Below, one piece after another: positions 14,102-35,837 of a DNA stretch of 48,250 bases. The notes below the pieces were generated by a model. The model saw nothing but the letters and a program-made list of their open reading frames with translations. It made no database searches and had not been told where the DNA came from. The stretch's first letter is position 1, and every line of letters begins with the position of its first letter. The translations under genes and the position numbers were made by a program. This stretch comes from a virus, in IMG/VR virus record IMGVR_UViG_3300036851_000302, positions 1-48,250 of that record; one strand, given 5' to 3'.

Positions 14102-14236
14102 TTCAGCGATTGGCGGTGTGAAGGTGAGGGATACTTCGGTTGGACTGCCAAAAGCGGTCCGTGGGATTCGAGGCCCACAACTCTAGCTTCGGCTAGTGCG
14201 TAGCCTTCGCCGACCTAGTTCTCGCCAGCCGCTGAA
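14102..14236 (+). ncRNA. Predicted Y RNA 5
   Basis: Outer stem TTCAGCG/CGCTGAA (14102-14108 with 14230-14236), then TGGCG/CGCCA, then GAAGGU/GCCUUC. The Ro-type block GGUGUGAAGGUGAGGGAUAC and the 3' strand CUUCGCCGACCUAGUUCUCG are nearly identical to Y RNA 4. The tip has GGACUGC-CAAAA-GCGGUCC, a T-arm-like hairpin GUGGG-AUUCGAGG-CCCAC and an acceptor-position hairpin CUAGC-UUCG-GCUAG capped by a UUCG tetraloop; no D arm is evident. It ends 37 bases before the Ro60 start codon. Confidence 0.75.
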
Positions 14237-14273
14237 TTCGAAACGGGGAACGAAACGGGGAAAGGACGGTGCG

Positions 14274-15923
14274 ATGACTCCGAAGTTCGCTAAGACAACT
14301 CCGCGTGCGCCTGTGGGTCTGGTGCTCACCGACCCGGACAAGCCCACGGTTACCCACGAAGGTGGTGTAGCCTTCGAACTCGACGCGAAGGGTGCACTGT
14401 TCACCCTCGCCTCAACCTCGTTCGTGCAGGAGGACACCCTCTACGAGACCGCGGCTACCCGCGACAACCGTCTCGTCAACCTTGTGCATCAGGTCGCCGC
14501 CGAGGACCCCGAATGGGTAGCGCGCTTCGTCCCCTACCTCCGCGGTCAGCTCAACATGCGTTCGGCTGCCGTCGTCGTGGCGTGCGAGTATGCCCACACG
14601 GTACTTGAGGGTCGGAAGGGCGATTGGTTCAACCGCGTCAACGTTCCGGCTATCCGCGGAGTCATCGCTTCAGCTTGCCTCCGCGCTGACGAGCCCGCGG
14701 AAGTCATCGGCTACTGGTGGCAGCGGTTCGGCCGCGGACTCCCCAAGCCCGTCAAGCGCGGAGTTGCCGACGCTGCCGTTCGCCTCTACACCCAGCGCAG
14801 CGCTCTCCGCTACGACGGTAAGTCTCGCGCCATCCGTATGGCCGACGTCATCGAACTCACTCACCCCAAGCCACGCGACGGTGAGCAGGCTGCGTTGTTC
14901 CGTTGGCTGCTCGACCACCGCCACCGGGACGTGGTTGATGTTCCCGCAGCTTTATTGCCTGTCATCGAAGCCCGTGCTGCATTGGACTTGATGCCCGTCG
15001 ACGCACGGCGTCCGCTCGTCGGCTCTGCGCTCGCCGCCGAAACCCTCAACCAGGCAGGTATGTCCTGGGAAGCGCTGTCTGGCTGGCTGCAAGGCCCGAT
15101 GGACGCTACCGCGTGGTCGGCCGTCATTCCGTCGATGGGCCTGATGGCGCTCACCCGCAACCTGCGCAACTTCGACGAAGCGAAGGTGCCCGACGCCATC
15201 GCCCAGTCGGTGATGACTCGTCTCGGTGACGCTGAGGAGGTTCGCCGTTCGCGCCAGTTCCCGTTCCGTTTCTGGACGGCATACCGCGAAGCTCCCTCCA
15301 AGCGCTGGGCATACCCGCTCGAACAGGCTGTCCGCCACGCGTGCTCGAACATCCCGCAGCTGGGTGGCCGCACGCTTGTGTTCGACGACGTCTCGGGCTC
15401 CATGGACGCCGTCTTGTCCGCGCGCTCATCCGTGCAGCGCTGGGAGGTCGGTGCCGTGTTCGCTGGCGCTATGACCCGCGCCTGCGAGCAGGTCGACCTG
15501 ATTCCGTTCGCCACGCATTCAGCCGCGGCCCGGTTGTCTCCGGCTGACGACATCCTCAAGGTCGTGGAGGTCGTGCGCGAGGTCCATACCTCCGGCCGTC
15601 TCGAACACGGGACGAACATCTGGGGAGCCGTCCGTGACCACTGGGACGGCCATGACCGCATCGTCATCTTCACCGACATGCAAGCGCACGACTCCTACGG
15701 TCGTCCGCATGCTTACGTGCGCTCCTTCAACGACAGGCCGGTTGGGACGCTTCCTGCCTACGACGCCTGCAGGTTCATCTATGCCTTCGACCTGGCGGGC
15801 TACGACCGTGGCGGGCTCGACACGACTCAGCCCGGGCGCTACCAGCTTGCCGGGTTCTCGGATGCCGCCTTCCGCATCATGGAGGCCATCGAGCGCGGAG
15901 CGCGGTCGGATTGGCCGTTCTGA
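14274..15923 (+). CDS. rsr: Ro60-like TROVE domain protein (Rsr type)
   Basis: 549 residues from ATG 14274 with AAAGGA nine bases upstream. N-terminal 340 residues show the TROVE repeat pattern (VHQVAAEDPEWVARFVPYLR then NMRSAAVVVACEYA; similar helical repeats follow). The C-terminal part is a von Willebrand A-like domain with an intact MIDAS, FDDVSGSM (Asp372, Ser374, Ser376) and VIFTDMQAHD. Ro60 is a ring that binds misfolded RNA in its hole and Y RNA on its outer face; in Deinococcus Y RNA tethers it to polynucleotide phosphorylase. Here it lies immediately behind five predicted Y RNAs and is probably co-transcribed with them. Length and motifs are normal. A role in degrading or sequestering host or phage RNA is inferred. 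Confidence 0.93.
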   Translation: MTPKFAKTTPRAPVGLVLTDPDKPTVTHEGGVAFELDAKGALFTLASTSFVQEDTLYETAATRDNRLVNLVHQVAAEDPEWVARFVPYLRGQLNMRSAAVVVACEYAHTVLEGRKGDWFNRVNVPAIRGVIASACLRADEPAEVIGYWWQRFGRGLPKPVKRGVADAAVRLYTQRSALRYDGKSRAIRMADVIELTHPKPRDGEQAALFRWLLDHRHRDVVDVPAALLPVIEARAALDLMPVDARRPLVGSALAAETLNQAGMSWEALSGWLQGPMDATAWSAVIPSMGLMALTRNLRNFDEAKVPDAIAQSVMTRLGDAEEVRRSRQFPFRFWTAYREAPSKRWAYPLEQAVRHACSNIPQLGGRTLVFDDVSGSMDAVLSARSSVQRWEVGAVFAGAMTRACEQVDLIPFATHSAAARLSPADDILKVVEVVREVHTSGRLEHGTNIWGAVRDHWDGHDRIVIFTDMQAHDSYGRPHAYVRSFNDRPVGTLPAYDACRFIYAFDLAGYDRGGLDTTQPGRYQLAGFSDAAFRIMEAIERGARSDWPF

Positions 15924-16022: not shown

Positions 16023-16772
16023 ATGGCTTGGCTCCCACCGTCACAGCGGCTCACTTCCGGTGAGTCCACTTCAGACCCGCGGCTAGACCGTGTGCGGCGC
16101 GTCGACCTCCGCACGCTGCGATACCCCGTCGACCACATTTTGCCGCCGGAGGCTTACCTGGAACCTCGCAGCACAGCCTACGAACTCACCACCGTCTTAG
16201 ACCAAGGCGCTGAGGGAGCTTGCGTGGGGTTCGGCTTCGCGCATGAACTCCTCGCTGCCCCGCAACAGGTACAAGCCGACGTAACGTTGGCTCGCGAGAC
16301 CATTTACTGGGCTGCTCAACAGCGTGACCCGTACCCCGGTGGCGCATACCCCGGCGCCGACCCGTTCATGGAAGGGACCTCCGTCGTCAGCGCGTCCGAC
16401 GTTATGCGCGAACTCGGTTACTACACCGCCGTGCATTGGGCCTTGACCTTCGCCGACCTCATCGCAGCGCTCGGCCATTATGGTCCGGTGGTCATCGGCG
16501 TTGACTGGTACGAAGGGATGTCCATGCCCGACGCTGACGGGTTCATTCGTCCGACCGGACTCATCCGCGGAGGGCACTGCGTCTGCCTCGTCGGCATCCA
16601 GTTTAACTCGGTCTACATCCCGGAAATCGACCACGCGAAGAGCTGGGTCATCGTGCACAACTCGTGGGGTCCAGACTGGGGGGACGGTGGTCGAGCCAAG
16701 TTGTCGCTAGCGGATTTGGCCGTGTTGTGGCCGGGCGGGGACTTCTGTATCCCAGTACGGGCGTACTCGTGA
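16023..16772 (+). CDS. Papain-like (C1) cysteine protease
   Basis: 249 residues. The C1-family catalytic set is complete: LDQGAEGACVGFGFAHELL (oxyanion Gln61, nucleophile Cys67), GGHCVCLVG (His185) and HNSWGPDWGDGG (Asn213). The N-terminal 50 residues form a propeptide-like or substrate-like extension with VRRVDLRTLRYPVDH. No signal peptide, so it acts in the cytoplasm or is packaged. It stands alone between the Ro60 gene and the second basic-protein set and could process phage proteins such as the tagged effectors; that link is speculative. Confidence 0.9.
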   Translation: MAWLPPSQRLTSGESTSDPRLDRVRRVDLRTLRYPVDHILPPEAYLEPRSTAYELTTVLDQGAEGACVGFGFAHELLAAPQQVQADVTLARETIYWAAQQRDPYPGGAYPGADPFMEGTSVVSASDVMRELGYYTAVHWALTFADLIAALGHYGPVVIGVDWYEGMSMPDADGFIRPTGLIRGGHCVCLVGIQFNSVYIPEIDHAKSWVIVHNSWGPDWGDGGRAKLSLADLAVLWPGGDFCIPVRAYS

Positions 16773-18132: not shown

Positions 18133-18144
18133 TACTCTGTGAGC

Positions 18145-19401
18145 GTGGTGCTTGCACCGGACTCTGAGCAGAACCGAATAAACTGGCATCGCCCGTGGCT
18201 GTACCCGCGCCAACTCGACGCCATCTACGACCCAGCACGAGTCTCGGTCGTCGAAGCTTCCACCAAGTCGGGGAAAACTTCTGGCTGTCTGGTTTGGCTC
18301 ATCGAGCTGGCGATGCGTGGCCGCTCCGGTCAGAACTACTGGTGGGTAGCTCCCTCCTATTCCCAAACCTCTATCGCGTACGTCCGTGCCAAACACGGGC
18401 TCTCGCGTGACCTCTACGTCGCTAACAAGACGGAGATGACCATCACTCTCATCAACGGTACCGTCATCACCTTCAAAACAGCCGAGAAGCCCGACCTCCT
18501 CTACGGCGAAGACGTCTACGGCGTCGTGCTCGACGAGTCGACCCGTATGCGCGAGGAAGCCTGGTACGCCATCCGTACGACCATCACCGCTACCCAAGCC
18601 CCCGTGCGCATCATCGGCAACGTCAAGGGCCGGAAGAACTGGGCTTACCGCATGGCTCGCCGCGCCGAGAAGGGCGAGCCCGACATGGCGTATCACAAGC
18701 TCACCTCCGCTGACGCAATCGCAGCAGGCATCCTCGCAGGCACGGAAGTCGAGGGCGCCCGTCGCGACTTACCCGAAGCCGTCTTCCGCGAGTTGTACGA
18801 AGCTGAGCCCTCCGACGACGAGGGCAACCCGTTCGGGCTTGCGCATATCGCTGCGTGTACCGTCGACGGGCTCTCTCTCGGCGACCCAGTCGCCTGGGGG
18901 TGGGACCTCGCGCGCGCGCAGGACTATACCGTCGGTATCGCGTTCGACTTCGAGGGCGACGTCTGTCGGTTCGTGCGCTTCCAGAAGCCGTGGGAAGAAA
19001 CCCTCGACATCATCGTCGAGCAGACCGGTGGTGTCCGTGCCCTCGTTGACGCAACCGGAGTCGGTGACCCTATCGTCGAGCGCCTCCAGAAAATCGGGTG
19101 GAACTTCGAGCGCTTCGTGTTCACCTCGTCCACCAAACAGCAGTTGATGGAGCGTCTCGCGCTCGCCATCCAGCATCACGCCATCAGGTTCCCTCGTGGG
19201 CCAATCTCCATCGAGCTGGAGGGCTTCGAGTACGAGTACACGAGGTTGGGCGTGCGCTACTCGGCGCCATCCGGAGACCACGACGACTGCGTCATCGCGC
19301 TGGCGTTGGCGGTGTCCGGACTTCCGCGGGTCCACGTCACGCCCCTGGCAACGTTGAACCCCGCGCGTCAGATGTTGGGTCCAACAGCGATGAGCCAGTA
19401 A
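18145..19401 (+). CDS. terL: Terminase large subunit
   Basis: 418 residues from GTG 18145 (TACTCT then six bases, leaderless style); the in-frame GTG at 18139 is an alternative and adds two residues. Walker A is VVEASTKSGKT, Walker B YGVVLDESTRM. The nuclease acidic residues are GWDLARAQDYT, ALVDATGVGDP and SGDHDDCVIALALA, all in the expected order. The protein cuts concatemeric DNA and pumps it into the prohead. Size is typical. The putative small subunit lies 6 kb upstream, separated by the Ro/Y locus and basic-protein sets, an unusual distance. Confidence 0.95.
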   Translation: MVLAPDSEQNRINWHRPWLYPRQLDAIYDPARVSVVEASTKSGKTSGCLVWLIELAMRGRSGQNYWWVAPSYSQTSIAYVRAKHGLSRDLYVANKTEMTITLINGTVITFKTAEKPDLLYGEDVYGVVLDESTRMREEAWYAIRTTITATQAPVRIIGNVKGRKNWAYRMARRAEKGEPDMAYHKLTSADAIAAGILAGTEVEGARRDLPEAVFRELYEAEPSDDEGNPFGLAHIAACTVDGLSLGDPVAWGWDLARAQDYTVGIAFDFEGDVCRFVRFQKPWEETLDIIVEQTGGVRALVDATGVGDPIVERLQKIGWNFERFVFTSSTKQQLMERLALAIQHHAIRFPRGPISIELEGFEYEYTRLGVRYSAPSGDHDDCVIALALAVSGLPRVHVTPLATLNPARQMLGPTAMSQ

Positions 19402-19614: not shown

Positions 19615-19838
19615 GTTTGCGACGCAAGCCCTACACACAAATCGGTATCGCTCGACTCCCGTGCGGGCGATGCGGTCGTCGCCCTGCGACTACGCAGTTC
19701 CAAATCTGCGCGGACGACAACATCTGGCGGGTGCTGTGTCGTCGTTGCGATATCCAGTTGAACCGAATCGTGTTGCGGTTCTTCAACGACCCTGAGGTGA
19801 CAGCTAAGCTGTCGGACTACATCGGGCGGGTGTCGTGA
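19611..19838 (+). CDS. Zinc-ribbon protein
   Basis: 75 residues, GTG 19611. LPCGRCGRRPATTQFQICAD and LCRRCDIQLNRIVLRFF give two CxxC pairs, a classical zinc ribbon, followed by a helix. The small size and position just before the tagged effectors suggest an accessory; no function is known. Confidence 0.7.
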   Translation: MSLRRKPYTQIGIARLPCGRCGRRPATTQFQICADDNIWRVLCRRCDIQLNRIVLRFFNDPEVTAKLSDYIGRVS

Positions 19839-20320
19839 GCTTCCAGACCCTCCAGCGCAACGGGGTCCTCTATGAGGCAAGCCCCAACCAGTCAGTCGTA
19901 GCGCATGGCACACCCGGCCGACCGTCGTACGCGAAGTACCACCGTGGCGGTCCCGGCTCCAAGGAACGCATCGCTCGCAGCGCCCGCTCCCCTGGCGGCG
20001 GCTTCACCTACCAGCCCCTCACCACGAACCAGCCGACCACGGGCTGGGCCGTCTCCATCTACCCCGAGCACGAGGTCAAGCTCAAAGCCTCCGAGGTCAC
20101 CCGAGAACGCGTCCACGCTTACGTTCAGGACCGCATGCACGTCTTCCGAAGCGACCCTCAGGCCCACCTCGGAGGGTGGCATGACCCGGATACTGGGACC
20201 GTATACTTAGACATCTCCAGAGTGGTGGGCTCCAGAGCGGAGGCGATGCGACTTGGCCGAGAGCACAGACAGAAAGCGGTCTACTCCCTTGACGAAGGTG
20301 AGTCTCACGAAGTCGGGTGA
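19835..20320 (+). CDS. Tagged effector-like protein 1 (GWHDPDTG domain)
   Basis: 161 residues, GTG 19835 (GTGA overlap). Residues 1-39 are the shared tag, here MSFQTLQRNGVLYEASPNQS followed by VVAHGTPGRPSYAKYHRGG, with a 9-residue insertion relative to the three other copies. The C-terminal domain (50-161) has GWAVSIYPEH, HLGGWHDPDTGTVYLDISRV and LGREHRQKAVYSLD. The pattern GGW.D..TG.VYLD.S.VV...A..LGREH.Q.A is found in phage morphogenesis-associated (MuF-linked) polyprotein modules; I do not know its activity. Followed by two small genes. Confidence 0.75.
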   Translation: MSFQTLQRNGVLYEASPNQSVVAHGTPGRPSYAKYHRGGPGSKERIARSARSPGGGFTYQPLTTNQPTTGWAVSIYPEHEVKLKASEVTRERVHAYVQDRMHVFRSDPQAHLGGWHDPDTGTVYLDISRVVGSRAEAMRLGREHRQKAVYSLDEGESHEVG

Positions 20321-20429
20321 ACCGACGGTGTTCCTGACGCGCCCCGAGAAGGGCGAGTCTGTCGACGCATTCGCTGACCGCGTCTTCGCGGCACTACAGA
20401 AGCAGACCGGGAAGAACGCCGAGGACTAG
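20298..20429 (+). CDS. Small gene after effector 1
   Basis: 43 residues from GTG 20298, overlapping the effector gene by 23 bases: MSLTKSGEPTVFLTRPEKGE, then a helix SVDAFADRVFAALQKQTGK. Possible cognate partner or immunity factor by analogy with neighbouring pairs. No family known. Confidence 0.5.
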   Translation: MSLTKSGEPTVFLTRPEKGESVDAFADRVFAALQKQTGKNAED

Positions 20430-20438
20430 GTTCGTCCG

Positions 20439-20645
20439 GTGGCCGACCAGGACGACACTGCGATTGTCGCAGCGGGTGGGCTTTGCGAGCCGTGGGACGG
20501 CGTCGTCCGACCAGGAGACCGCGGCATAGTTACGTTCCGTACGGTCCGTGATTCTACCCCGGCGTTGTTGTCAAGACGCGGCTGGGACCTCGCGCGTCGT
20601 CTCTGGCGTTTGTGCCGATTCTGGTTCACGGGTAGGACGCGATGA
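20439..20645 (+). CDS. Small hypothetical protein
   Basis: 68 residues from GTG 20439. Acidic beginning MADQDDTAIVAAGGL, with a strand-like PWDGVVRPGDRGIVTF and a basic, tryptophan-rich end (RRLWRLCRFWFTGRTR) that could lie on a membrane. The stop overlaps the next ATG (ATGA). Real-gene evidence is the overlap and continuous coding, not homology. Confidence 0.5.
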   Translation: MADQDDTAIVAAGGLCEPWDGVVRPGDRGIVTFRTVRDSTPALLSRRGWDLARRLWRLCRFWFTGRTR

Positions 20646-21385
20646 GCTACCAGACGCTTCGGCGTAACTCAGCCATCCTTGCGCACGGCACTCTGGGCCG
20701 CCCCAGTTACGGGAAGTACCATCCCGGCGGCGGGCGCGGCACCGACCTCGTCGGCCGTGGACCAATCACGACTTCCGCCCAAGCCGCACGCGCTCTCGCG
20801 GCACGCGCCAAGCAAGCTGAACGCCAACTCACCCCCGTCGTCACGGGCGCAGTCGCCAAGGCTGGCGGCACGATGGACAAACTCCAATATCGCCTCAAGG
20901 CCGAGAATCCCGACAAGCCGGGTGAGGGCATCAAGCGCCTTGAAGAGAAGATTGACCTCACCATGCGCAAGGACGGCGTCTCGGCTGCCGAAGCCGCTGA
21001 CTCCATCGCCGATGCCGTGCGTTACACCGCCGTTTTCCCCGACGAGAGGTACCCGCAAGGCATCACCTCTACGCTCGATGCCTTGCGAGCTGAGGGCGCG
21101 TCAGTCTACGACAAGAAGGACAAGAACTTCTGGAAGAAGGGTGACCCTTACCAGGGGTTCAACGTCACTGCCGTCGCCTCCAACGGGCAGAAGTTCGAGG
21201 TGCAGTTCCACACCCCACGAAGCTTGGCCGTAGCTAACACGAATCATCCGCTTTACCAACTGGCTCGCAAGCCGACGACGACCGCCCCCGTCCGCCAGCA
21301 CCTCACCATGCTGATGACGGCGTCGAGCGCTACGGTCCCGGTACCTCCCGGTATCGAGAACATCGGTACTCCAACGAGCGCCTGA
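20642..21385 (+). CDS. Tagged effector-like protein 2: RelA/SpoT-like synthetase fold
   Basis: 247 residues. Tag: MSYQTLRRNSAILAHGTLGR then PSYGKYHPGG. The domain at 75-215 follows the alarmone-synthetase order: RLK (84-86), a Lys-rich helix ending EEKI, DAVRYT (Asp124, Arg127), KNFWKKGDPYQGFN (Asn162-Trp164, Tyr170, Asn174) and FEVQFHTPRS (Glu186 to Thr191). Related small synthetases include toxic members (toxSAS, Tas1) that make (p)ppGpp or (p)ppApp or pyrophosphorylate tRNA. Sequence similarity is by motif only; catalytic competence is not proven. The next gene is small and acidic and may neutralise it; the HD hydrolase at 3609 is another candidate counterpart. Confidence 0.72.
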   Translation: MSYQTLRRNSAILAHGTLGRPSYGKYHPGGGRGTDLVGRGPITTSAQAARALAARAKQAERQLTPVVTGAVAKAGGTMDKLQYRLKAENPDKPGEGIKRLEEKIDLTMRKDGVSAAEAADSIADAVRYTAVFPDERYPQGITSTLDALRAEGASVYDKKDKNFWKKGDPYQGFNVTAVASNGQKFEVQFHTPRSLAVANTNHPLYQLARKPTTTAPVRQHLTMLMTASSATVPVPPGIENIGTPTSA

Positions 21386-21624
21386 TGAGCGTTCGCTACT
21401 TCGCCTCTGTTCCTTTCGACGACGGGGTGCAGCGCGGTCTCGTTCGAGAACAGCGGCTCGGTGACCGGCTCATCCTCGAATATTTCGACGGCGATGGTTG
21501 GGTCGAGGACGGCGGGTTGATGGCAATCATCGTCGGCCAAGACTTGAGCGGCGAACCCATTTCTGAACAAGACGCGAAGAGGTTGGAGGACCGGTTGCGC
21601 GCGGAGCGTGGGAGCAAGCCGTGA
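21385..21624 (+). CDS. Small acidic partner of effector 2
   Basis: 79 residues, ATG 21385 (TGATG). VRYFASVPFDDGVQRGLVRE, ILEYFDGDGWVEDGGL and a C-terminal helix EPISEQDAKRLEDRLRAE. Proteins with this D-G-x-W...ISE-x-x-A pattern often sit right behind phage-borne toxins and capsid-linked effectors, so immunity is a reasonable guess. Strongly acidic, contrasting with the basic effector N-termini. Confidence 0.65.
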   Translation: MSVRYFASVPFDDGVQRGLVREQRLGDRLILEYFDGDGWVEDGGLMAIIVGQDLSGEPISEQDAKRLEDRLRAERGSKP

Positions 21625-22289
21625 GCTACCAGACCTTGCTTCGTAACCGTGCAGTCACTGCCCACGGCACTCAGGGGAGACCGTCGTATCCGAAGTATCA
21701 CCGAGGTGGTGGCGGAGGTGGGGAGGGCTCATTAGCTGAACAGGCGGCGTTGTTAAATCGCGGGAAGACGCTTGACCCTGACTCCAAGCTCGCGAAGGCT
21801 ATTGGTTCCTACACTTCGGGTACCGTTTCCCGAACTCCTGCGGCACTACGTGACGCGTTAGCCGAAGCGCCAGCTAATGCTCCGCAGCTTTATCGCGGCA
21901 TGGTGTTCGAGCAGAGCGGAGCAGGTTGGGACGCTTCTACAGCGGATGGGTTCATTGCCAAACTGCAACCTGGTGCAACGGTAAAATTAGATGCTTCCGG
22001 AGGACTAACGTCTTGGTCGAGTTCTCCGAAAGTAGGGCGGGAGTTCGCTGGCTTGACCGCTGCGGGGAAAATCCCGCGCGGACGAGTGGAGACTCCGGTG
22101 CTCAACGACATCGTTCCTGGCGACCGACGTGTTCTCTTCACTCTTAAGCCGGGCGCTAAGGCGTTGAACCTTGAGCCGCATGCTTCTCAGGGATGGCGGT
22201 ACCAGAAGGAGTGGGTGGTCCCCTCTCGTGTGACCGTTAAGTCAGTTCGTCATCAAGGTTCTTTAACTCTCGTTGAGGTGCAGCAATGA
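21621..22289 (+). CDS. Tagged effector-like protein 3: ADP-ribosyltransferase
   Basis: 222 residues; tag MSYQTLLRNRAVTAHGTQGR then PSYPKYHRGG, followed by a glycine linker. The R-S-E class of ADP-ribosyltransferases is recognisable: LYRGMVF (Arg92), TSWSSSPKVGREFA (Ser131-Ser135), and YQKEWVVP (Gln195-x-Glu197). The last strand VTVKSVRHQGSLTLVEV closes the fold. Such enzymes transfer ADP-ribose from NAD to target proteins or nucleic acids. The coding region from 21720 on is poorer in G+C than its neighbours and uses more A/T-ending codons, a hint of separate origin. Target unknown. Confidence 0.8.
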   Translation: MSYQTLLRNRAVTAHGTQGRPSYPKYHRGGGGGGEGSLAEQAALLNRGKTLDPDSKLAKAIGSYTSGTVSRTPAALRDALAEAPANAPQLYRGMVFEQSGAGWDASTADGFIAKLQPGATVKLDASGGLTSWSSSPKVGREFAGLTAAGKIPRGRVETPVLNDIVPGDRRVLFTLKPGAKALNLEPHASQGWRYQKEWVVPSRVTVKSVRHQGSLTLVEVQQ

Positions 22290-22408
22290 AGAGTCAGCTT
22301 AGAAGATGGTTGACGCGTCCTGAAGACATTGAGGTCGTTGAGGAGGAGCCGCAGGTTAAGCCGCTGCCGAAGGGGAAGCTTCGGCCGCCGAAGCCTCCGA
22401 AGAAGTGA
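22286..22408 (+). CDS. Very small gene after effector 3
   Basis: 40 residues, ATG 22286 (ATGA) and ending with GTGA overlap into the next effector: MKSQLRRWLTRPEDIEVVEE, EPQVKP and a basic Pro/Lys tail KLRPPKPPKK. Hypothetical; may be a partner or only a translational bridge. Confidence 0.55.
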   Translation: MKSQLRRWLTRPEDIEVVEEEPQVKPLPKGKLRPPKPPKK

Positions 22409-23346
22409 GTTACCAGACTCTGCTCCGGACTCGTGCTGTCGTCGCGCACGGAACCGTTGGTCGGCCTTCCTACCCGCGCTATCACGCGACCCCGCTGACT
22501 GGCCCCACCGTTTCAGCTGACTCGTTCCTCAACGACTGGCCGCCCGGTACCCGCGAGCACCTCTCCGGCGTTCTGCGTTCTAAACTCGGTGATGACTGGT
22601 CGAACCTCACCGATGACGAAGTCTTCGAACGCCTCACCGAGAACCATGGGCGGCTCATTGACGACGCGAAGCGCCGTCTCTCACCTGCCGAATTCGCGAA
22701 GCGGAAGAACTGGTACGCCAACGCGCATAACGATGTTCAAGTGATGTCACAGGAACTCGGTGTCGATGCCGAGAAAGCTTTCGCCGTTTCGGCTGCGCTC
22801 TCCGCGCAAGGAGACTGGTCGACTAGCGGCAAGCGCCTCGGTACTCTTGATTCCGCGAAGGCGCAACTCTCCGTCCTCAAACTTGACCCACGCTTTGGTG
22901 ACCGCAGCGTCCCCATCGACGACTCGTTGCTCCGCCTTCTGCCGAATACCCCCACCGCTAATCGGGACATGCGCGAGAAGATGGTTCGGCTCTGGCGCGG
23001 AGAGTCTCCCGACGCTGTCCTTCGTGGCGAGAACGGATGGAAGGTGCGTAACTTCTACTCGAATCTCACGAGCCCTAAAGCCCTCTCCGGCGTTACCATC
23101 GACCGTCATGCCATCCGTGCTTCGGTTGGCCGAGTGGTCCCGGAACAGGGTAAAGGTCTCACTCTTTCGAAACTCATTGGCAAACCTGGCCGTACGAAAG
23201 CTGGACCGTCAATCGCGTCCTACCAGTACCCCTTATTCGCCGACGCTATCGCTGAAGCTGGGCGTCGACGCGGGCTCCTTCCGCACGAAGCTCAGGCCGT
23301 CTCATGGAAGGAATGGCAGGACCAGAACCCAGGGAAGGCGCGATGA
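22405..23346 (+). CDS. Tagged effector-like protein 4 (DUF7178-like domain)
   Basis: 313 residues, GTG 22405. Tag: MSYQTLLRTRAVVAHGTVGR then PSYPRYH. The domain from about 75 on carries NWYANAHNDVQVMSQELGVD, AFAVSAALSAQGDW, KVRNFYSNLTSP, VTIDRHAIRA and LPHEAQAVSWKEWQ. The pattern W...AH..V..mA...G......A.aALSpq.dW...GKv..FY.NL......VTIDRHA...a..y...A...G..PhE.QA.tW..W is a phage family that I recall as DUF7178, possibly related to helix-hairpin-helix DNA glycosylases; this is unverified. If so it would act on DNA. Confidence 0.7.
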   Translation: MSYQTLLRTRAVVAHGTVGRPSYPRYHATPLTGPTVSADSFLNDWPPGTREHLSGVLRSKLGDDWSNLTDDEVFERLTENHGRLIDDAKRRLSPAEFAKRKNWYANAHNDVQVMSQELGVDAEKAFAVSAALSAQGDWSTSGKRLGTLDSAKAQLSVLKLDPRFGDRSVPIDDSLLRLLPNTPTANRDMREKMVRLWRGESPDAVLRGENGWKVRNFYSNLTSPKALSGVTIDRHAIRASVGRVVPEQGKGLTLSKLIGKPGRTKAGPSIASYQYPLFADAIAEAGRRRGLLPHEAQAVSWKEWQDQNPGKAR

Positions 23347-29152: not shown

Positions 29153-29508
29153 GTCTCGCGCTGCTCTACCTTCTCGTCGGACTTACTGCCTTCCGTGCGC
29201 AACGCCTCGTAACGGTCGACGAGTGGCCGCCGTCGTTGTCGTTTCGTGACTGGCTGAGACACCGTGCGGTCGTACGCGGGACACCTCATCCAACGGGTGA
29301 GCCCCGTGGATTTTGGGGACATACCTACAAACTGTTCACCTGCCATTGGTGTCTCGGCCTTTGGGCATCGGTGGTTGTCGTCGTGCTCACTCACTTGTTC
29401 GTGGCAGACCTTCTTACCGCAGAGGTACGTGAGCCCATCGGCGTCCTTGTTCTTGTAGCTGCCGCCGCATCCACCTTCGTGGGAATCATCGGTGACGCCC
29501 TCGAATAG
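29149..29508 (+). CDS. DUF1360-type membrane protein
   Basis: 119 residues, ATG 29149, AAGGAAG upstream. Hydrophobic segments LALLYLLVGLTAF, LWASVVVVVLTHLFV and VLVLVAAAASTFVGI; between them RAQRLVTVDEW and FTCHWCLGLWAS. The R-x-x-RL...D-x-W...C-x-W-C-x-G-x-W signature is that of DUF1360 proteins, often encoded beside actinophage portal genes. It overlaps the portal gene by 17 bases. Function unknown. Confidence 0.78.
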   Translation: MSLALLYLLVGLTAFRAQRLVTVDEWPPSLSFRDWLRHRAVVRGTPHPTGEPRGFWGHTYKLFTCHWCLGLWASVVVVVLTHLFVADLLTAEVREPIGVLVLVAAAASTFVGIIGDALE

Positions 29509-32488
29509 GACTGTCACCGCTGCCGCTACTCGTGTTCGCCTCGATGATGCGCCGTCGGTTAAGCGTGCTCTCGCTCTCCGGCAAGATTGGCAGAAGCTCG
29601 CATGGAACTATTACGACGCCGTCGGTGAACTCAAGTACGCAATCAACCTCATCGGCAGTGCTTGCTCGCGGATTCGACTTGTTCCCGCGGAAATCAAGGA
29701 GCCTGGAGCACCACCCTCTGTTCTGACCGCGGAGGACGATTCCGGTCGATTCAAGGACGCGATGTCCTTGCTCGATACTCTCCGCGGTCCTACGGGCAGC
29801 CACGCCGAGATGATGCGCGAGCTTGCTATCCATCTCGAAGTAGCGGGTGAGGGATATCTCATCGGTGCGGTTGCTCGGGACGAATTCGCAGAAGACCGCT
29901 GGTTCGTCGCTAGCGTCGACGAGCTGAAAAAGAAGTCGGGTCACGTCATCGTCTCGTCCGCGCGCTTGCCGTACGACGAAACGACGCTCGTGCTCACTGA
30001 GGACGACTTTTGGGCACGTATCTGGCGTCGGCATCCCCGTCGCTCCGACCACGCAGACTCACCCGTTCGTGGCGTGCTTAATGTGTGTGAAGAACTCGTC
30101 ACACTCGACCGAGCCGTCAAGGCTGTAGCTCAGTCGGGTATCTCTACCCGCAAACTCGTCGCTATCCCCGACGACATCAACCCAGCGGGCACGTACGTGG
30201 ACACGCAAGACGAGGGTGACGGGGAACTCGTGGGTGACCCATTCCTCGCGGACCTCATGGATATGTTCGTCACTCCGGTGCAGAAGGAAGGCACCGTCGC
30301 ACAGGTCGCCCCGTATCTTCTGCGCTACCCGTGGCGTTCTTCGAAGCCCGACCTCATGAGTGGCATCGAGGTTATCGACGTTGGCCGTGAACTCGACGCT
30401 GCTTTCGATGCGCGTACCGACCGCGCACTCCGCCGTCTCGCACAAGGACTTCAGCTCCCGCCCGAGTTGATTTTCGGGCTCAGTCAGGCGACGCATTGGG
30501 GGTCAGGGCAAATCGAGGAGTCGCTGTACCGAGAGCACATCGAGCCACTCGCTGCGCTCATCGTATCCAGCTTGACGGAGGTGTATTACCGCCCCGCTGC
30601 CGAAGAACTCGGGCTCGGTCCGTTGCTCGTGTGGCTTGACCCGTCAGAGCTAATCGTGCGTCCCGATACCCAGCAAGCCGCCGATTACGGTCACCGCTCG
30701 ATGCTCATTTCCGACGACTCGTGGCGGAACCAACGCGGGTTCAGTGACTCCGATAAACCTACGCCCAAGGAAGTCGAACGCCGTATCGCCATCGAGCAAG
30801 CATTGCGCATGCCGGGCATGGGGGTTCCTGAACTCGAAGACTCGGAGGACGAGGAAGAGAAGGCCGAGACGGATGCCGCAGCGAAGGAAGCACAGCTGGT
30901 GGAGCCTCCCACTAGCGCTATCGGCGTCCCAGCCCCGCGAGACGAAACACGTACTCCGGATGAGGCCGTTCTTGCCACTGGCCCAGACGGTGAGTTGAAG
31001 CTTGGTGCGGAACTCCGCGCGCTCGACGACATGCTGCGGCTACAGCTTCACGAAGCCGCGGAAGCGGCGCTTGAACGCACCATCGAGCGAGCAGAAGCGA
31101 AAGTGGTATCGCGCGCGCGCGCGGACAGTGTTCTGTCGCTCCGGGCGAAGAACGCTGAACGTGGTTGGGTCGTGACGGCAGTCGGCGGCGAAGAAGCACT
31201 CGAACGCTTCAGTCTTTCGGCTGTTGACCTTGTCGGTGGGACCTTCGCCAGTGTCGCTAGACGCCTGGAAACGCAGACCGCGAAGGTTTTCGCCGTCGTC
31301 CTCGACGCGGCAGGGGTAACTCGTTCGCAACGTACAGCGCTGAAGCAGCAGGCTGCGCATCGTGCGCACCAAGCCGGAGAGTGGCTTGCCCGCGAGCTTG
31401 AAATCCTCGCTATGGACCAGCTCCTTCGTCCGCGCGCCGTCACCTTCCATGACGATGAGCCCGGTGAGAAGGACCCCGACGCCCGCGTCCCGTTCCACTT
31501 GATTCGAGAAGCCGTTGCGCGCGCGGGCGGAGCTAATGGTCAAGGTGTCACGGCTGCCATGGCGGCCCCAACGCTTGTGGCCGGAATCGGTGTTAGTGAC
31601 CCGTCTTTCGACGTGTTGGCGGAAGCCGGTATCGGGACTGAGGCATGGCGGTGGGTGTATGGCGTTTATCCGCGCATGCCCTTTCCGCCCCACAAGCAAC
31701 TCGACGGCGTCATGTTCGACAACTTCGACGACCAAGTGCTTGCGTTCAACAGCTGGCCGGGAGGGTTCCTTTACCCAGGAGACCACAGCGGGTGCCGGTG
31801 CTCCATCGAGCCAGTGATGAGGCTCATCGCACAGCAACCATCCTTGTTCGTTGTAGCGGAACCCTCTGGAGCGGCTTTAGTTCGTATGGCTGAAGGGTTT
31901 GAACAGGCTGAAACTCTTCGCCAAAGCGCTCAGGGCAAACTTGAGGCGCTTGCTCTCACTGAGGGGTTAACGACGGCCGAGCAGGCGACGCTTGACTCGT
32001 ACATGGGATTCACCTACCGGTCAATCAACGACCGTCTCCGTGGGCGTAAGGTCAGCCGCACGTCCAAGCGTGCTTACACGGCGGAGGAGATACAGGCAGC
32101 TGACGAACATATCGCTGGCCTCGACGCGCTCTTCGGTAAGTTCAACATGCGTATAGAGCGCCCCTTGTTTGTGGCTCGTGGCGTCAATTTCGCGAAGTTC
32201 GACTCCGCGGTGAAGGACGCGTATCTCACACCTGGGTCAGTTATTCGTGAACCTGCGTTCATCTCCGCATCGACTAACATTCAGTCGGCTTGGACGGTAG
32301 CTCGCGACGACAAAGAGCCTGCGTTGCTCGTCATCGAGGTACCAGCCCAGAAACGCGTTTTGCCCGGCACCCACTACGAAGACGAGTTAATCCTTGAGCG
32401 TGGTCAAGAGCTTGAGATTGTGGACGTCATACCGGCTACTGAAGAAACGGGCTGGATGCTGACTATCCTTGGTCGTTTGAGAGGCTAG
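29492..32488 (+). CDS. Portal-MuF-ADP-ribosyltransferase fusion protein
   Basis: 998 residues, GTG 29492. Residues 1 to about 470 are an HK97/SPP1-type portal (NYYDAVGELKYAINLIGSA, LLRYPWRSSKPDLMSG, QGLQLPPELIFGLSQATHWG, PSELIVRPDTQQAADYG). Residues about 500-780 form a MuF-like head domain ending YPGDHSGCRCSIEPVM. Residues about 820-998 are an ADP-ribosyltransferase: YRSINDRLRG, FVARGV (Arg), AFISAST (Ser), HYEDELILERG (Glu963-x-Glu965). MuF-linked toxins are known, but portal, MuF and toxin in one chain is notable. Copies of the transferase would be fixed inside or at the neck of each particle. The 3' part is less GC-rich than the portal part. Confidence 0.88.
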   Translation: MTPSNRTVTAAATRVRLDDAPSVKRALALRQDWQKLAWNYYDAVGELKYAINLIGSACSRIRLVPAEIKEPGAPPSVLTAEDDSGRFKDAMSLLDTLRGPTGSHAEMMRELAIHLEVAGEGYLIGAVARDEFAEDRWFVASVDELKKKSGHVIVSSARLPYDETTLVLTEDDFWARIWRRHPRRSDHADSPVRGVLNVCEELVTLDRAVKAVAQSGISTRKLVAIPDDINPAGTYVDTQDEGDGELVGDPFLADLMDMFVTPVQKEGTVAQVAPYLLRYPWRSSKPDLMSGIEVIDVGRELDAAFDARTDRALRRLAQGLQLPPELIFGLSQATHWGSGQIEESLYREHIEPLAALIVSSLTEVYYRPAAEELGLGPLLVWLDPSELIVRPDTQQAADYGHRSMLISDDSWRNQRGFSDSDKPTPKEVERRIAIEQALRMPGMGVPELEDSEDEEEKAETDAAAKEAQLVEPPTSAIGVPAPRDETRTPDEAVLATGPDGELKLGAELRALDDMLRLQLHEAAEAALERTIERAEAKVVSRARADSVLSLRAKNAERGWVVTAVGGEEALERFSLSAVDLVGGTFASVARRLETQTAKVFAVVLDAAGVTRSQRTALKQQAAHRAHQAGEWLARELEILAMDQLLRPRAVTFHDDEPGEKDPDARVPFHLIREAVARAGGANGQGVTAAMAAPTLVAGIGVSDPSFDVLAEAGIGTEAWRWVYGVYPRMPFPPHKQLDGVMFDNFDDQVLAFNSWPGGFLYPGDHSGCRCSIEPVMRLIAQQPSLFVVAEPSGAALVRMAEGFEQAETLRQSAQGKLEALALTEGLTTAEQATLDSYMGFTYRSINDRLRGRKVSRTSKRAYTAEEIQAADEHIAGLDALFGKFNMRIERPLFVARGVNFAKFDSAVKDAYLTPGSVIREPAFISASTNIQSAWTVARDDKEPALLVIEVPAQKRVLPGTHYEDELILERGQELEIVDVIPATEETGWMLTILGRLRG

Positions 32489-32493
32489 AGAAC

Positions 32494-32658
32494 GTGGCAG
32501 AGGAGACTCGGGAGCAGGAAGAGCGTGGAGCGTTCCGCGAGCGCGTCGTCGCGGAATCCGATGGAGTTAAGGTAGTGAAGAAAGGCCCGAAGGCCAACCG
32601 GTTCCCGTACGAGGAAGAGCGCAAGAAGGCGAAGCAGGAGGCCGAGGGTGGCGGATAA
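32494..32658 (+). CDS. Small charged protein between portal and protease genes
   Basis: 54 residues, GTG 32494, missed by length filters: MAEETREQEERGAFRERVVA, VKKGPKANRFPYEEERKKAK. Helical and highly charged. It follows the ADP-ribosyltransferase domain, so it may restrain that enzyme before release or be a scaffold accessory. Confidence 0.6.
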   Translation: MAEETREQEERGAFRERVVAESDGVKVVKKGPKANRFPYEEERKKAKQEAEGGG

Positions 32659-35392
32659 GCCGGTTGTCGCGGGTGCTGCATACGACGGTGCGATGCTCGC
32701 CGTCACTCCAACCGATGAGGAAGCGCATCGAATCGCTCAGCCGTGGGGGGAGGACCAGGCTCAACTCCATGTCACGCTAGCGTTCCTGACGGATGACGCT
32801 TCGGCGATGGAGGCAGGGACCCAGCAGCGCGTCGCAGCTGTGGCGCAGTCCGTGGCAGAGAAGTTCTCGGGGACGCTCCGAGGTACCGTGACCGCGCTAA
32901 CCCATTTCGGCGAGAAGGATGGTCAGGTCCCGTGTATCGCCATCGTCAGCGTAAATGGCCTTGACGAATTGCGGGTAAACGTCATCGGCCAACTTCGTCA
33001 AGAGAAGATTGCGTACTCGTCCGACTATGGGTTCGTCCCGCACCTCACGCTGGGATATCACCCGCCCGGCGAGTGCCCTGGGGTTGACCCCGTAGTCATC
33101 AGCGCCCCGCTGACCTTCAGCGGTGTGGGTCTATGGTGGGCGGGGGAGCACCAAGAGTTTTCCTTCACGCCCGCGAGCGACGGTAAGATGCCAGAAGCGC
33201 CTGAGAAGGAGGCTGTGTTGGCGGACCCTGCGAAGGTGGCACTCGATGTGAAGGAGGCGGTCGAAGGAGGAGCCCCGCTTCCGCAGAGCCAGGACGAGAA
33301 GTCCTTACCCGAGAAGTGGGATGCCGTTCTCGCTATCGAGGGAGAGCGGACGACCGACGGTCGGTTCATCGAGCACGACGCGCTCACGTGGCGTGCGCTT
33401 CCCCTTCCCCTCATGTGGCAGAAGTCCCGCGCGCATGGTGGCATGCCGCAAGACGTCTGTGTGCAGGTCGGAACCATCCAGGACATCCGCCGCGAAGGTT
33501 ACGAAATCCGCGCGAGCGGAACCTTCGACCTCGCGTCGGAGGATGGTCGCGAACTCGCGCGCCGTGTGCGTGACCAGATAACTCGGTGGGTCTCAATCGA
33601 CGCCGAAATCCAGTCCTTTGACGTTTCTCGCGAGGGTGACTGTGGTAGTGCGGCGCTTGACCTGTTGCTTGCTCACGGTGAGACACCGACTCCAACCGAG
33701 ACACCGACTCCTCCACCGCCAGGAATCGTCACGCCGAAGTCTGAGCCCATCATCCGTCAGCCGACAGCTCGTAAGAAGTGCATCGAGACCTACCACGTAC
33801 AGGCTGGTTCCATCATGGGCGCAACCGTTGTCGGCTTCCCTGCGCTACCCGGTGCAGTCATCGTTCCAGCGGGCGTGGATATCCCACCTATTCCCGAAGG
33901 GATACGCGGGCGCCCCGCGGCCCAGGTTGCGGCTGGGGCTTTCGGTGTAGAGGAAGCGCATACCAAGCTCGCTGAAGCGAGGACGAGGGTAGCGGACTAC
34001 ATCGAGGACCCGACACTCATCACGCCGGAGACGATGAAGGCGTTGCTGCAAGCGCTCAGCGAAGCACACGACGAACTTGATTCGGCTATCGGCGAGAAGA
34101 AGGTCGAAGTTACCGAGAACGCGAAAGCGGAATCGGGAGAAGGCGAGCATCCAGGAGGGGAATCCGTCGCCGCTTCAGCTGTCCCGTTCGGCCCTACCGG
34201 TCAGCCGGTCAGCGAGCAGGCGTGGGACGGTGAGGCTTCCCGCTTCACCGATGAGCAGTACAAGGAATCGACGGCAGCATGCGAAGAGGGCGACGAGTCC
34301 GTCAAGCAGCGCTGCTTCCTTCCCCATCACGACCCAAATGGCCGCGTCAATCGGCGAGGGGTCTACGCGGCAGCCCAGCGTCTTACATCTTTGAAGCGGT
34401 CCTCGCAAGCCAAGCAGCGTGCAGCGACGCACATCCTGTCGCACTACACCCGCGACCTCAATGAGGAACCACCGAATATCCTGCGGGCGGCATCCGAAGC
34501 CGAGCCGTGGGCACTCGAACCTGCTGAAACCGATGAGCAGTCGGCTGGTCTTCTTGCGCGTGCGGACCAGTGGGCGGCTGACGAAGTCGCAGCTTTCGTT
34601 GCGGCGGCCCCCGAAGGCGTCTGGCGCGTTGCCCCCCAGTCAGAACTGGCGCTGACGGCTTGCGGGGGTCCCGCGCGTCCGCCCCGCGAGTGGTTCGAAA
34701 ACCCGCAACTCCCTGAGCTTCAGCGCTGGGTGACCGTTACCGACGACGGTCACGTGTTCGGCCACCTAGCCGGTTGGGGCGAGTGCCACATCGGGCTCCA
34801 CCGTTGCGTCACAGCCGAGAAGCTGATGGAAGGCGGCTTCGAATCCGCGATGCATGGTCATGTCGTCGCTGAGGACGGGTCGAAGGTCGGCGTTATGCCC
34901 ATCGCCATCAAGAACGGACACGCTGACGTACGTTGGGATTGGCGGAAAGCTCAAGCGCACTACGATGACCCGTCATGCGCCCCGCTGCTTGTAGCCGTTG
35001 GTCCGGACGAGCATGGAGTGTGGTTCGCAGGGACCGTCAAGCCTGACGCGAGCCCCGAAGACATCCTCACCGTTCGGGCTCACGGTGTGTCCGGTGACTG
35101 GCGCGTCATCGGCGGCAAGCTCCGCCTCGTCGGCGCATGCGCTATCAACGTCCCGGGGTTCCCGAAGCTCCAAGCCCGTGTTGCGTCGGGCGACGTTGTT
35201 ACGCTCATCGCCGCAGGTGGTGCACCGCAATCAGCTCCGGGCGCCTGCGGGTGTCGCGACGACAATGTCCGTGAAATCGCGTTGCGCGCGTTGGAGGCAA
35301 CGACTGAGAGCCGCGATGCCTACCTGAAGTTGACGCGCCAACTCCGCCCCGTCATCCGCGAACAGCTCCTTGCGGAGGTGCGTGGTGGCTGA
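32648..35392 (+). CDS. 2H phosphoesterase fused to capsid maturation protease
   Basis: 914 residues, GTG 32648 with GAGG upstream. Residues 1-175 are a 2H (LigT/2'-5' RNA ligase-like) domain: HVTLAFL (His41-Thr43) and HLTLGY (His132-Thr134). Residues about 220-350 match actinophage capsid maturation proteases (TTDGRFIEHDALTWRALPLP, VQVGTIQDIRREGYEI, RWVSIDAEI). A Pro/Thr linker and an acidic helical scaffold-like stretch follow. From about 640 on: WVTVTDDGHVFGHLAGWG, HYDDPSCAPLLVAVGPDEHG, VSGDWRVIGGKLRLVGACAI and NVPGFP, a C-terminal module usually found in these proteins. It cuts scaffold or capsid during head maturation; the 2H substrate is unknown. Confidence 0.85.
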   Translation: MADKPVVAGAAYDGAMLAVTPTDEEAHRIAQPWGEDQAQLHVTLAFLTDDASAMEAGTQQRVAAVAQSVAEKFSGTLRGTVTALTHFGEKDGQVPCIAIVSVNGLDELRVNVIGQLRQEKIAYSSDYGFVPHLTLGYHPPGECPGVDPVVISAPLTFSGVGLWWAGEHQEFSFTPASDGKMPEAPEKEAVLADPAKVALDVKEAVEGGAPLPQSQDEKSLPEKWDAVLAIEGERTTDGRFIEHDALTWRALPLPLMWQKSRAHGGMPQDVCVQVGTIQDIRREGYEIRASGTFDLASEDGRELARRVRDQITRWVSIDAEIQSFDVSREGDCGSAALDLLLAHGETPTPTETPTPPPPGIVTPKSEPIIRQPTARKKCIETYHVQAGSIMGATVVGFPALPGAVIVPAGVDIPPIPEGIRGRPAAQVAAGAFGVEEAHTKLAEARTRVADYIEDPTLITPETMKALLQALSEAHDELDSAIGEKKVEVTENAKAESGEGEHPGGESVAASAVPFGPTGQPVSEQAWDGEASRFTDEQYKESTAACEEGDESVKQRCFLPHHDPNGRVNRRGVYAAAQRLTSLKRSSQAKQRAATHILSHYTRDLNEEPPNILRAASEAEPWALEPAETDEQSAGLLARADQWAADEVAAFVAAAPEGVWRVAPQSELALTACGGPARPPREWFENPQLPELQRWVTVTDDGHVFGHLAGWGECHIGLHRCVTAEKLMEGGFESAMHGHVVAEDGSKVGVMPIAIKNGHADVRWDWRKAQAHYDDPSCAPLLVAVGPDEHGVWFAGTVKPDASPEDILTVRAHGVSGDWRVIGGKLRLVGACAINVPGFPKLQARVASGDVVTLIAAGGAPQSAPGACGCRDDNVREIALRALEATTESRDAYLKLTRQLRPVIREQLLAEVRGG

Positions 35393-35693
35393 TTTGCCGA
35401 CCAACGGTGGGCCTCATCCCGCAGGTCAGCAACGGCTAGTTCCGGGACAAAACGTCGCGTTCGGGCCACTTACGACTGTTGTCTCCATCTTGACTCTTCC
35501 GAACGGGCAGAAGGTGGTGCAGCTTCGTGCAGAGACGACGGTCGGCACGATTGTTCACCTCCTGGAGTTGGACCACGCTGAATCGCTCGCTGAGAAGCTT
35601 TCGCTGATGGCTAAGCAGGCGCGTACTGGGCTAACCGTAGTCCCGAATTCGCCGTTGATTACGCCGCCCCGCGACGGGCCGGGTGTACCATGA
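35385..35693 (+). CDS. Small capsid-associated protein
   Basis: 102 residues; GTG 35385 or 35382, with GGAGG a few bases before. Mostly beta: NVAFGPLTTVVSILTLPNGQ, VVQLRAETTVGTIVHLLELD and a helical LAEKLSLMAKQARTG. It sits between the protease and major capsid genes, the usual place of a decoration or scaffold-like protein. No named family. Confidence 0.62.
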   Translation: MADLPTNGGPHPAGQQRLVPGQNVAFGPLTTVVSILTLPNGQKVVQLRAETTVGTIVHLLELDHAESLAEKLSLMAKQARTGLTVVPNSPLITPPRDGPGVP

Positions 35694-35837
35694 GCGCAGC
35701 CATTGGAACATAGAGCAGGGACGAACCCGCTAGACGCGTAGCGCTTAGCGGGGTCGCCGGGAGCCGGTCCGTAGGACGCCGGGGACACGCCCCTCACTGA
35801 AGCTGGACTGTTGTATCGGTGAGAGGAGGAGACCCGG
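35694..35837 (+). other. Structured leader before the major capsid gene
   Basis: 144 bases without a gene. Contains the hairpin CCCGCUA...UAGCGGG and a GC-rich CCGG-type stem further on, then GAGGAGGAG before the capsid start. No good promoter hexamers at normal spacing were found. Likely a translation-enhancing or processing leader. Confidence 0.45.

What the first reader, a model, noticed from the sequence alone, without database searches (positions are those of the whole stretch)
19835..23346. Four effector-like proteins share one conserved N-terminal tag
Seen: proteins at 19835, 20642, 21621 and 22405 all begin M-S-[YF]-Q-T-L-x-R...AHGT-x-GRPSY-x-[KR]-YH, then diverge completely into a MuF-associated-type domain, a RelA/SpoT-like fold, an ADP-ribosyltransferase and a DUF7178-like domain. 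Codons for the tag differ between copies while the protein sequence is kept, so the tag is under selection. Inference: a shared address label, most simply for loading into the procapsid (compare the capsid-targeting sequences of T4 internal proteins) or for recognition by a processing protease such as the papain-like one at 16023. The phage would inject a set of enzymes with its DNA. I know of no description of this tag.
Basis: partly seen in the sequence, partly recalled or inferred. Interest (0 to 1): 0.92.

Follow-up and report, generated by a model that had tools for sequence, protein, structure and literature searches.

The report
Shared delivery tag on phage effectors
A bacterial virus puts the same short, rigidly conserved tag on the front of four unrelated enzymes; the tag, and a second unrelated one found here in other viruses of soil bacteria, probably marks proteins to be carried in the virus particle and injected into the host, but this has not been tested in the laboratory.

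Summary
Four adjacent genes (19835, 20642, 21621, 22405) begin M-S-[YF]-Q-T-L-x-R ... A-H-G-T-x-G-R-P-S-Y-x-[KR]-Y-H and are unrelated afterwards. Third codon positions are scrambled while the residues are kept. A profile made only from other phages' tags finds all four (E 4e-8 to 7e-7). The second half of the tag also occurs in about 17 Streptomyces-type (pro)phage loci, always just before an ADP-ribosyltransferase inside head-protein polyproteins (after MuF, RNA-ligase or protease domains), sometimes in tandem. There the tag is far better conserved than the enzyme. The portal, protease and capsid genes of those phages are homologous to the window's. A second, unrelated tag ([IV]-x-[TS]-A-R-[ED]-Q-x-x-x-L-x-P-W) marks suites of two to five unrelated proteins in Mycobacterium and Gordonia myophages and IMG/VR contigs, including DUF7178 and the 19835-type domain. 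Best explanation: a portable cargo label that sends free-standing effectors into the head for co-injection, working like the T4 capsid-targeting sequence but with no demonstrated homology to it. Whether the conserved half acts in loading, processing or ejection is open. No virion data exist for this phage.

The parts
19835..19858 (+). Tag half A of protein 1 (MSFQTLQR)
   Evidence: half A occurs only in the four window proteins
19901..19942 (+). Tag half B of protein 1 (AHGTPGRPSYAKYH), after a 9-residue insertion
19943..20317 (+). Body of protein 1: domain like the C-terminus of phrog_3170
   Evidence: E 4e-7; 27% identity over 131 aa to Mycobacterium phage DrPhinkDaddy gp105
20642..20665 (+). 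Tag half A of protein 2 (MSYQTLRR)
20681..20722 (+). Tag half B of protein 2 (AHGTLGRPSYGKYH)
20723..21382 (+). Body of protein 2: alarmone synthetase domain with motifs RYT, GFN, QFHT
   Evidence: phrog_2859 and phrog_7625; MuF C-termini of Streptococcus, Pasteurella and Mannheimia phages; PDB 8vx3 E 2.9e-18; motifs
21385..21624 (+). 79-aa ORF directly after protein 2, in the place of an immunity gene; function unknown
   Evidence: no similarity to the ORF after the Javan146 MuF toxin
21621..21644 (+). Tag half A of protein 3 (MSYQTLLR)
21660..21701 (+). Tag half B of protein 3 (AHGTQGRPSYPKYH)
   Evidence: residues 1-33 predicted disordered
21702..22286 (+). Body of protein 3: ADP-ribosyltransferase fold (YRG 91, SWSSS 131, QKE 195)
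   Evidence: AF2 model and Foldseek PDB hits to ARTs, E 7.8e-7; aligned with Streptomyces tag-ART units
22405..22428 (+). Tag half A of protein 4 (MSYQTLLR)
22444..22485 (+). Tag half B of protein 4 (AHGTVGRPSYPRYH)
   Evidence: residues 1-42 predicted disordered
22486..23343 (+). Body of protein 4: DUF7178, all-helical, enzyme activity unknown
   Evidence: Pfam PF23802 E 1.5e-15; model; no PDB match
18139..19401 (+). Terminase large subunit (context)
   Evidence: phrog_2 E 7.7e-31
29492..32488 (+). Portal + MuF-like + ADP-ribosyltransferase fusion, untagged (context)
32648..35392 (+). 2'-5' RNA ligase-like domain fused to capsid maturation protease-type protein, untagged (context)
   Evidence: 44% identity to the protein annotated capsid maturation protease in phage DSL-LC01
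35838..37580 (+). Major capsid protein (context)
   Evidence: phrog_777 E 1.7e-73
16023..16772 (+). Papain-like protease; candidate but untested processing enzyme
   Evidence: Peptidase_C1 E 1.3e-6; phrog_16701 E 2e-34

Best explanation
The tag is a portable cargo label. Unrelated effector enzymes that are not fused to a head protein carry it at the N-terminus so that they are taken into the phage head during assembly and injected with the DNA. The anatomy suggests two parts. Half A (MS[YF]QTLxR) is found only on free-standing proteins and would be the head-loading signal. Half B (HGTxGRPSYxKYH) is found on free-standing proteins and also inside head polyproteins just before an ADP-ribosyltransferase, and would serve a step that both kinds need, such as release from the polyprotein, holding inside the head, or ejection. 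Shown: the shared tag, constraint on its protein sequence, its separability from the cargo, its presence in head polyproteins of phages with homologous head genes, predicted disorder, and a parallel unrelated tag on the same kinds of cargo. Inferred: presence in the virion, injection, and the roles of the two halves.
For: 1) Same 14-residue half B at the junction between head domains (MuF, RNA ligase, protease-type polyprotein) and an ART in about 17 Streptomyces-type loci; their portal, protease and capsid proteins match the window's. 2) The tag is conserved beyond the enzyme: window protein 3 versus those units, tag 10-12 of 14 identical, ART 18-26%; three tandem tag-ART units in one ORF, tag 12-13 of 14, ART 44-48%. 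3) Cargo families are known head cargo: MuF-fused alarmone synthetases (PMC12226406) and ARTs (PMC9503650). 4) In the window, predicted effectors are either fused to portal/MuF/protease (29492, 32648) or tagged. 5) An unrelated N-terminal tag in Mycobacterium cluster C and Gordonia myophages marks homologs of proteins 1 and 4 plus GNAT, ParB, glutaredoxin and Arr-type proteins: 203 records, 409 places; 2-3 per genome in four of five searched; up to five per contig. 6) DUF7178 without a tag is domain-only (five of five, motif at residue 35-37), with a tag it has an extension (five of five). 7) Tag residues are predicted disordered. 8) Precedents: T4 CTS and the P1 DarB N-terminal 30 residues.
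Against: No virion proteomics for any tagged protein was found. About 770-840 sequenced phages have a homologous capsid or portal protein and no INPHARED record gave a match to the tag (a short and insensitive query), so the label is not an obligate partner of this head type. Phages related by terminase (L027-L035) lack it. Half B inside MuF fusions, and repeated within one chain, would be redundant if its only job were loading. Capsid and portal proteins of the tag-bearing phages are only about 26-31% identical, so a conserved binding site for a nearly invariant peptide is not obvious.
Confidence: 0.55

Rival explanations
1. The tag is mainly a processing signal: a phage protease (the maturation protease-type protein 32648 or the papain-like protein 16023) recognises half B and frees the enzymes from polyproteins or trims the free-standing ones.
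For: Half B stands exactly at domain junctions of polyproteins and before each tandem ART unit; it is predicted disordered; both protease types are in the window.
Against: Free-standing proteins do not need release from anything. The papain-like gene was not traced in the other phages. No cleavage-site logo is known for this family. T4-type processing needs only a few residues, whereas some ten positions are fixed here.
Confidence: 0.18
2. Half B works after or during ejection, or by holding the cargo to packaged DNA; it binds something universal such as nucleic acid, metal or a conserved host factor, which would explain conservation across diverged phages.
For: Tag nearly invariant while all structural proteins have diverged; basic and His/Tyr-rich; contains a GRP core.
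Against: The AT-hook core needs R-G-R-P, but the residue before GRP is the most variable position (P, Q, L, V, R). No host protein with the tag was seen.
Confidence: 0.15
3. The tag is an evolutionary by-product: the N-terminal stub of an ancestral tag-ART gene that was reused as a start region by recombination, without present function.
For: In all Streptomyces-type loci the tag is linked to ART, and window protein 3 is a homologous tag-ART.
Against: Residues kept while third positions are randomised; tag conserved better than the enzyme; an unrelated tag shows the same pattern elsewhere.
Confidence: 0.05
4. The tag is recognised by a common chaperone or antitoxin that keeps toxic enzymes silent in the producing cell.
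For: Two cargoes belong to toxin-type families; a small ORF (21385-21624) sits where an immunity gene would be.
Against: That ORF is not similar to the corresponding ORF after the Javan146 MuF toxin; DUF7178 and the 19835 domain are not known toxins; MuF-type toxins use cargo-specific immunity proteins.
Confidence: 0.07

Closest known systems
Capsid-targeting sequence (CTS) of phage T4 internal proteins IPI, IPII, IPIII and Alt
   Same: Short N-terminal sequence shared by otherwise diverse injected proteins. T4 ipII and ipIII both begin MKTYQEFIAE; residues 4 and 7 matter for targeting (PMC9026906), and half A has Tyr3 and Leu6 at the same spacing.
   Different: Half B has no counterpart in T4; the tag is longer and also occurs internally in polyproteins; no Glu-type cleavage site; the resemblance of half A is only 2-3 residues; no homology shown.
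N-terminal packaging signal of phage P1 DarB
   Same: The first 30 residues suffice to send a reporter into the capsid (PMC9024508).
   Different: Not shown there to be shared by a suite of unrelated enzymes; sequence not compared here.
MuF polymorphic toxins (Apk2 and others)
   Same: Same kinds of C-terminal effector (alarmone synthetase, ART), variable behind a constant N-terminal delivery part (PMC12226406, PMC5576092).
   Different: In the window the constant part is a peptide of about 30 residues, not a MuF domain, and the genes are free-standing.
Exported alarmone synthetases (SaEAS, PDB 8vx3)
   Same: Same enzyme fold, with the delivery element at the N-terminus (PMC12691689).
   Different: Those use Sec, T6SS, T7SS, MuF and other elements; this tag is not among those listed in the passages read.
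Polyvalent proteins of phages
   Same: Multi-enzyme effectors thought to be packaged and injected (PMC5512222).
   Different: Here the enzymes are separate genes united by a tag; the Streptomyces tag-ART polyproteins are closer to that architecture.

Membership tests
T4-type capsid-targeting sequence | N-terminal peptide shared by several unrelated proteins of one phage | tested here: met
T4-type capsid-targeting sequence | Sequence homology to MKTYQEFIAE | tested here: inconclusive
   Only Y-Q and the hydrophobic residue three further on agree; too short to judge
T4-type capsid-targeting sequence | Sufficient to bring a foreign protein into the head | not testable with these tools
   needs a tag-reporter packaging assay
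T4-type capsid-targeting sequence | Removed by the prohead protease | not testable with these tools
   needs virion mass spectrometry
MuF polymorphic toxin | MuF domain N-terminal to the toxin domain in the same protein | tested here: not met
   No MuF in the four proteins; a MuF-like segment is in 29492 only
Alarmone synthetase, Apk2/EAS type (protein 2) | Sequence homology and Syn motifs RYT, GxN, [YF]H | tested here: met
   motifs as described in PMC12226406
Alarmone synthetase, Apk2/EAS type (protein 2) | Makes (p)ppApp or (p)ppGpp | not testable with these tools
   needs an enzyme assay
ADP-ribosyltransferase, R-S-E clade (protein 3) | ART fold with R, S-T-S-like and [QE]-x-E motifs | tested here: met
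   Foldseek E 7.8e-7; YRG 91, SWSSS 131, QKE 195; Pfam threshold not reached
DUF7178 (protein 4) | Pfam PF23802 above gathering score | tested here: met
   58 bits, cut-off 27
AT-hook | R-G-R-P core | tested here: not met
   Residue before GRP is variable

The most novel reading that the evidence does not exclude
Viruses of actinobacteria carry lineage-specific cargo codes: each lineage has its own short peptide that any enzyme gene can acquire to become a virion-delivered effector. Two unrelated codes are documented here. The HGTxGRPSY code also works from inside polyproteins and has a separate loading half and release or ejection half.
Probability: 0.42. Interest if true: 0.87.

Novelty: new variant of a known kind. 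Interest (0 to 1): 0.74.

Why it matters
If right, the tag predicts which unknown phage proteins enter the host at infection, without virion proteomics, and gives short handles for loading foreign proteins into actinophage heads. It would extend the T4 CTS idea to unrelated phages. The second tag is immediately testable: it is present in about 190 sequenced Mycobacterium phage records, many isolated on laboratory M. smegmatis mc2 155, with two or three tagged proteins in each of the Mycobacterium phages examined.

Tried and rejected
DNA-level repeat or recent duplication: rejected, third positions scrambled. Tag as part of the ART fold: rejected, it precedes three non-ART domains and is predicted disordered. 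AT-hook: core arginine not conserved. Tag inherited with the terminase lineage: rejected, nine terminase relatives lack it. Tag as obligate partner of this head type: rejected, many phages with homologous capsid or portal and no tag found. Internal start codons before the tag in Streptomyces polyproteins: Shine-Dalgarno-like four-mers are present in several, but such four-mers are common, so left as an idea. Similarity of the 79-aa ORF to the ORF after the Javan146 MuF toxin: none. Fold of DUF7178 in the PDB: no match. Relaxed patterns in IMG/VR gave only ART fusions and chance hits. Neither tag sequence was found in the text of the paper library.
Full report
OBSERVATION. The four ORFs lie where stated. 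Their N-termini share 17 invariant positions in two blocks: half A, M-S-[YF]-Q-T-L-x-R, and half B, A-H-G-T-x-G-R-P-S-Y-x-[KR]-Y-H. Protein 1 has nine extra residues between the halves. The motif occurs four times in the window and in no reversed control. Leave-one-out profiles and a profile built only from foreign tags recover all four with good E-values; the next hit is at E 0.005. First and second codon positions agree at 35-38 of 44, third positions at 7-12 of 22, so the peptide is kept by selection and is not a recent copy. No similarity remains behind the tag.

THE CARGO. Protein 1 resembles the C-terminal part of phrog_3170. Protein 2 is an alarmone synthetase domain: it matches the C-terminal toxin part of MuF proteins in Streptococcus, Pasteurella and Mannheimia phages and the solved Streptomyces enzyme 8vx3 at E 2.9e-18, and has the RYT, GxN and [YF]H motifs described for MuF-borne adenosine 3'-pyrophosphokinases. 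Protein 3 is an ADP-ribosyltransferase by predicted fold. Protein 4 is DUF7178, all-helical with no PDB match. In both AF2 models the tag is disordered (residues 1-33 and 1-42 below pLDDT 50).

CONTEXT. The window is a 48,250-base IMG/VR virus record. The tagged genes lie between terminase (18139) and a portal-MuF-ART fusion (29492), followed by an RNA-ligase plus maturation-protease-type protein (32648) and the major capsid protein (35838). The effector domains recognised around the head genes are either fused to head proteins (29492, 32648) or, when free-standing, tagged. Nine IMG/VR relatives by terminase lack the tag, and their portal and capsid proteins gave no hits with the window's.

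SAME TAG ELSEWHERE. Half B occurs in IMG/VR contigs and Streptomyces genomes, always directly before an ART domain. The ART follows a MuF domain, an RNA-ligase/MuF polyprotein, or a protease-type polyprotein with a winged-helix-like segment. One ORF has three tandem tag-ART units. Window protein 3 and these units share 10-12 of 14 tag residues but 18-26% of the ART; the tandem units share 12-13 of 14 and 44-48%. These phages' portal, protease-type and capsid proteins match the window's at roughly 26-31%, 22-45% and 27-28%. Half A was found in none of them. The tag is rare: 5 of 400 Streptomycetaceae genomes gave a hit, one of them a chance match, and 1 of 398 Actinomycetota genomes. A 30-residue query found nothing in 50,697 phage records.

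AN INDEPENDENT SECOND TAG. Homologs of proteins 1 and 4 in Mycobacterium phage DrPhinkDaddy (gp105, gp104) share their own N-terminus, [RK]-[IV]-x-[TS]-A-R-[ED]-Q-x-x-x-L-x-P-W. This tag is in 203 phage records at 409 places. In Tonenili it is also on a 125-aa protein next to the capsid gene; in Gordonia phage Skog on DUF7178, phrog_3170-like and ParB/GNAT-like proteins. An IMG/VR scan gave, with Skog, 42 tagged ORFs (some from near-identical contigs), up to five on one contig, in about ten body families, including DUF7178, GNAT acetyltransferases, glutaredoxin, ParB-N and Arr-type ADP-ribosyltransferase. DUF7178 proteins without a tag start directly at the domain; those with either tag have an extension. 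The untagged Andris copy lies near an Ocr-like antirestriction gene, away from head genes.

MECHANISM. The two tags are unrelated in sequence but mark overlapping cargo kinds in late gene clusters. The simplest reading is a cargo label for virion delivery. T4 provides the precedent: diverse internal proteins with only a conserved CTS; P1 DarB is a second. T4 ipII and ipIII were confirmed to start MKTYQEFIAE; half A resembles it in Tyr-Gln and the hydrophobic residue three positions on, which is suggestive only. Because half A is confined to free-standing proteins while half B also occurs inside head-protein fusions, I infer that half A loads and half B serves a later step (release, retention or ejection). 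That division is inference.

LIMITS. No virion data, no cleavage data and no partner are known. Many phages with homologous head proteins seem to do without the tag. The choice between loading, processing and ejection for half B is open, which is why confidence is 0.55 and not higher.

Noticed in passing
L022, L066, L067, L070, L103-L148; window homologs at 19835 and 22405: A second, unrelated N-terminal tag ([IV]x[TS]AR[ED]QxxxLxPW) on suites of unrelated proteins in Mycobacterium and Gordonia myophages and IMG/VR contigs, up to five per contig.
   Followed up: partly
L038 (record G008), reverse strand: Three tandem tag-ART units in one polyprotein after a MuF domain, separated by stretches ending in DKRAKAS(A)-like sequence; similar stretches recur in other Streptomyces loci and may be processing sites.
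   Followed up: no
L001, L010, L018, L020, L052, L059: In-frame ATG/GTG codons 3-9 codons before the tag inside polyproteins, several with a Shine-Dalgarno-like four-mer; possible internal starts or relics of gene fusion.
   Followed up: partly
window 20439-20645: 68-aa ORF whose start (DTAIVAAGGLCEPWDG..RGIVTF) resembles a segment of the window's major capsid protein (EAITAAGGLCAPP..RGGIQF).
   Followed up: no
window 21385-21624: 79-aa ORF overlapping the end of protein 2 and the start of protein 3, placed like an immunity gene of MuF alarmone-synthetase toxins; no family match.
   Followed up: partly
window 14196-15923: TROVE/Ro60-type protein with a vWA-like segment upstream of the terminase (Pfam E 1.9e-13).
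   Followed up: no
window 18139-19401 versus 29492-37580: Mosaic phage: terminase nearest to contigs L027-L035, while portal, protease and capsid are nearest to Streptomyces-type and actinophage head modules.
   Followed up: partly
window 45011-45967 and 46749-47465: Two glycosyltransferase-like genes behind the head-tail adaptor (phrog_28745, phrog_29879).
   Followed up: no
L147 6239-7033 and other phrog_3170 members: Just behind the second tag these have a short H-G-[ST]-x-H-T-x-G-G-R stretch that loosely recalls HGTxGR; may be chance.
   Followed up: no
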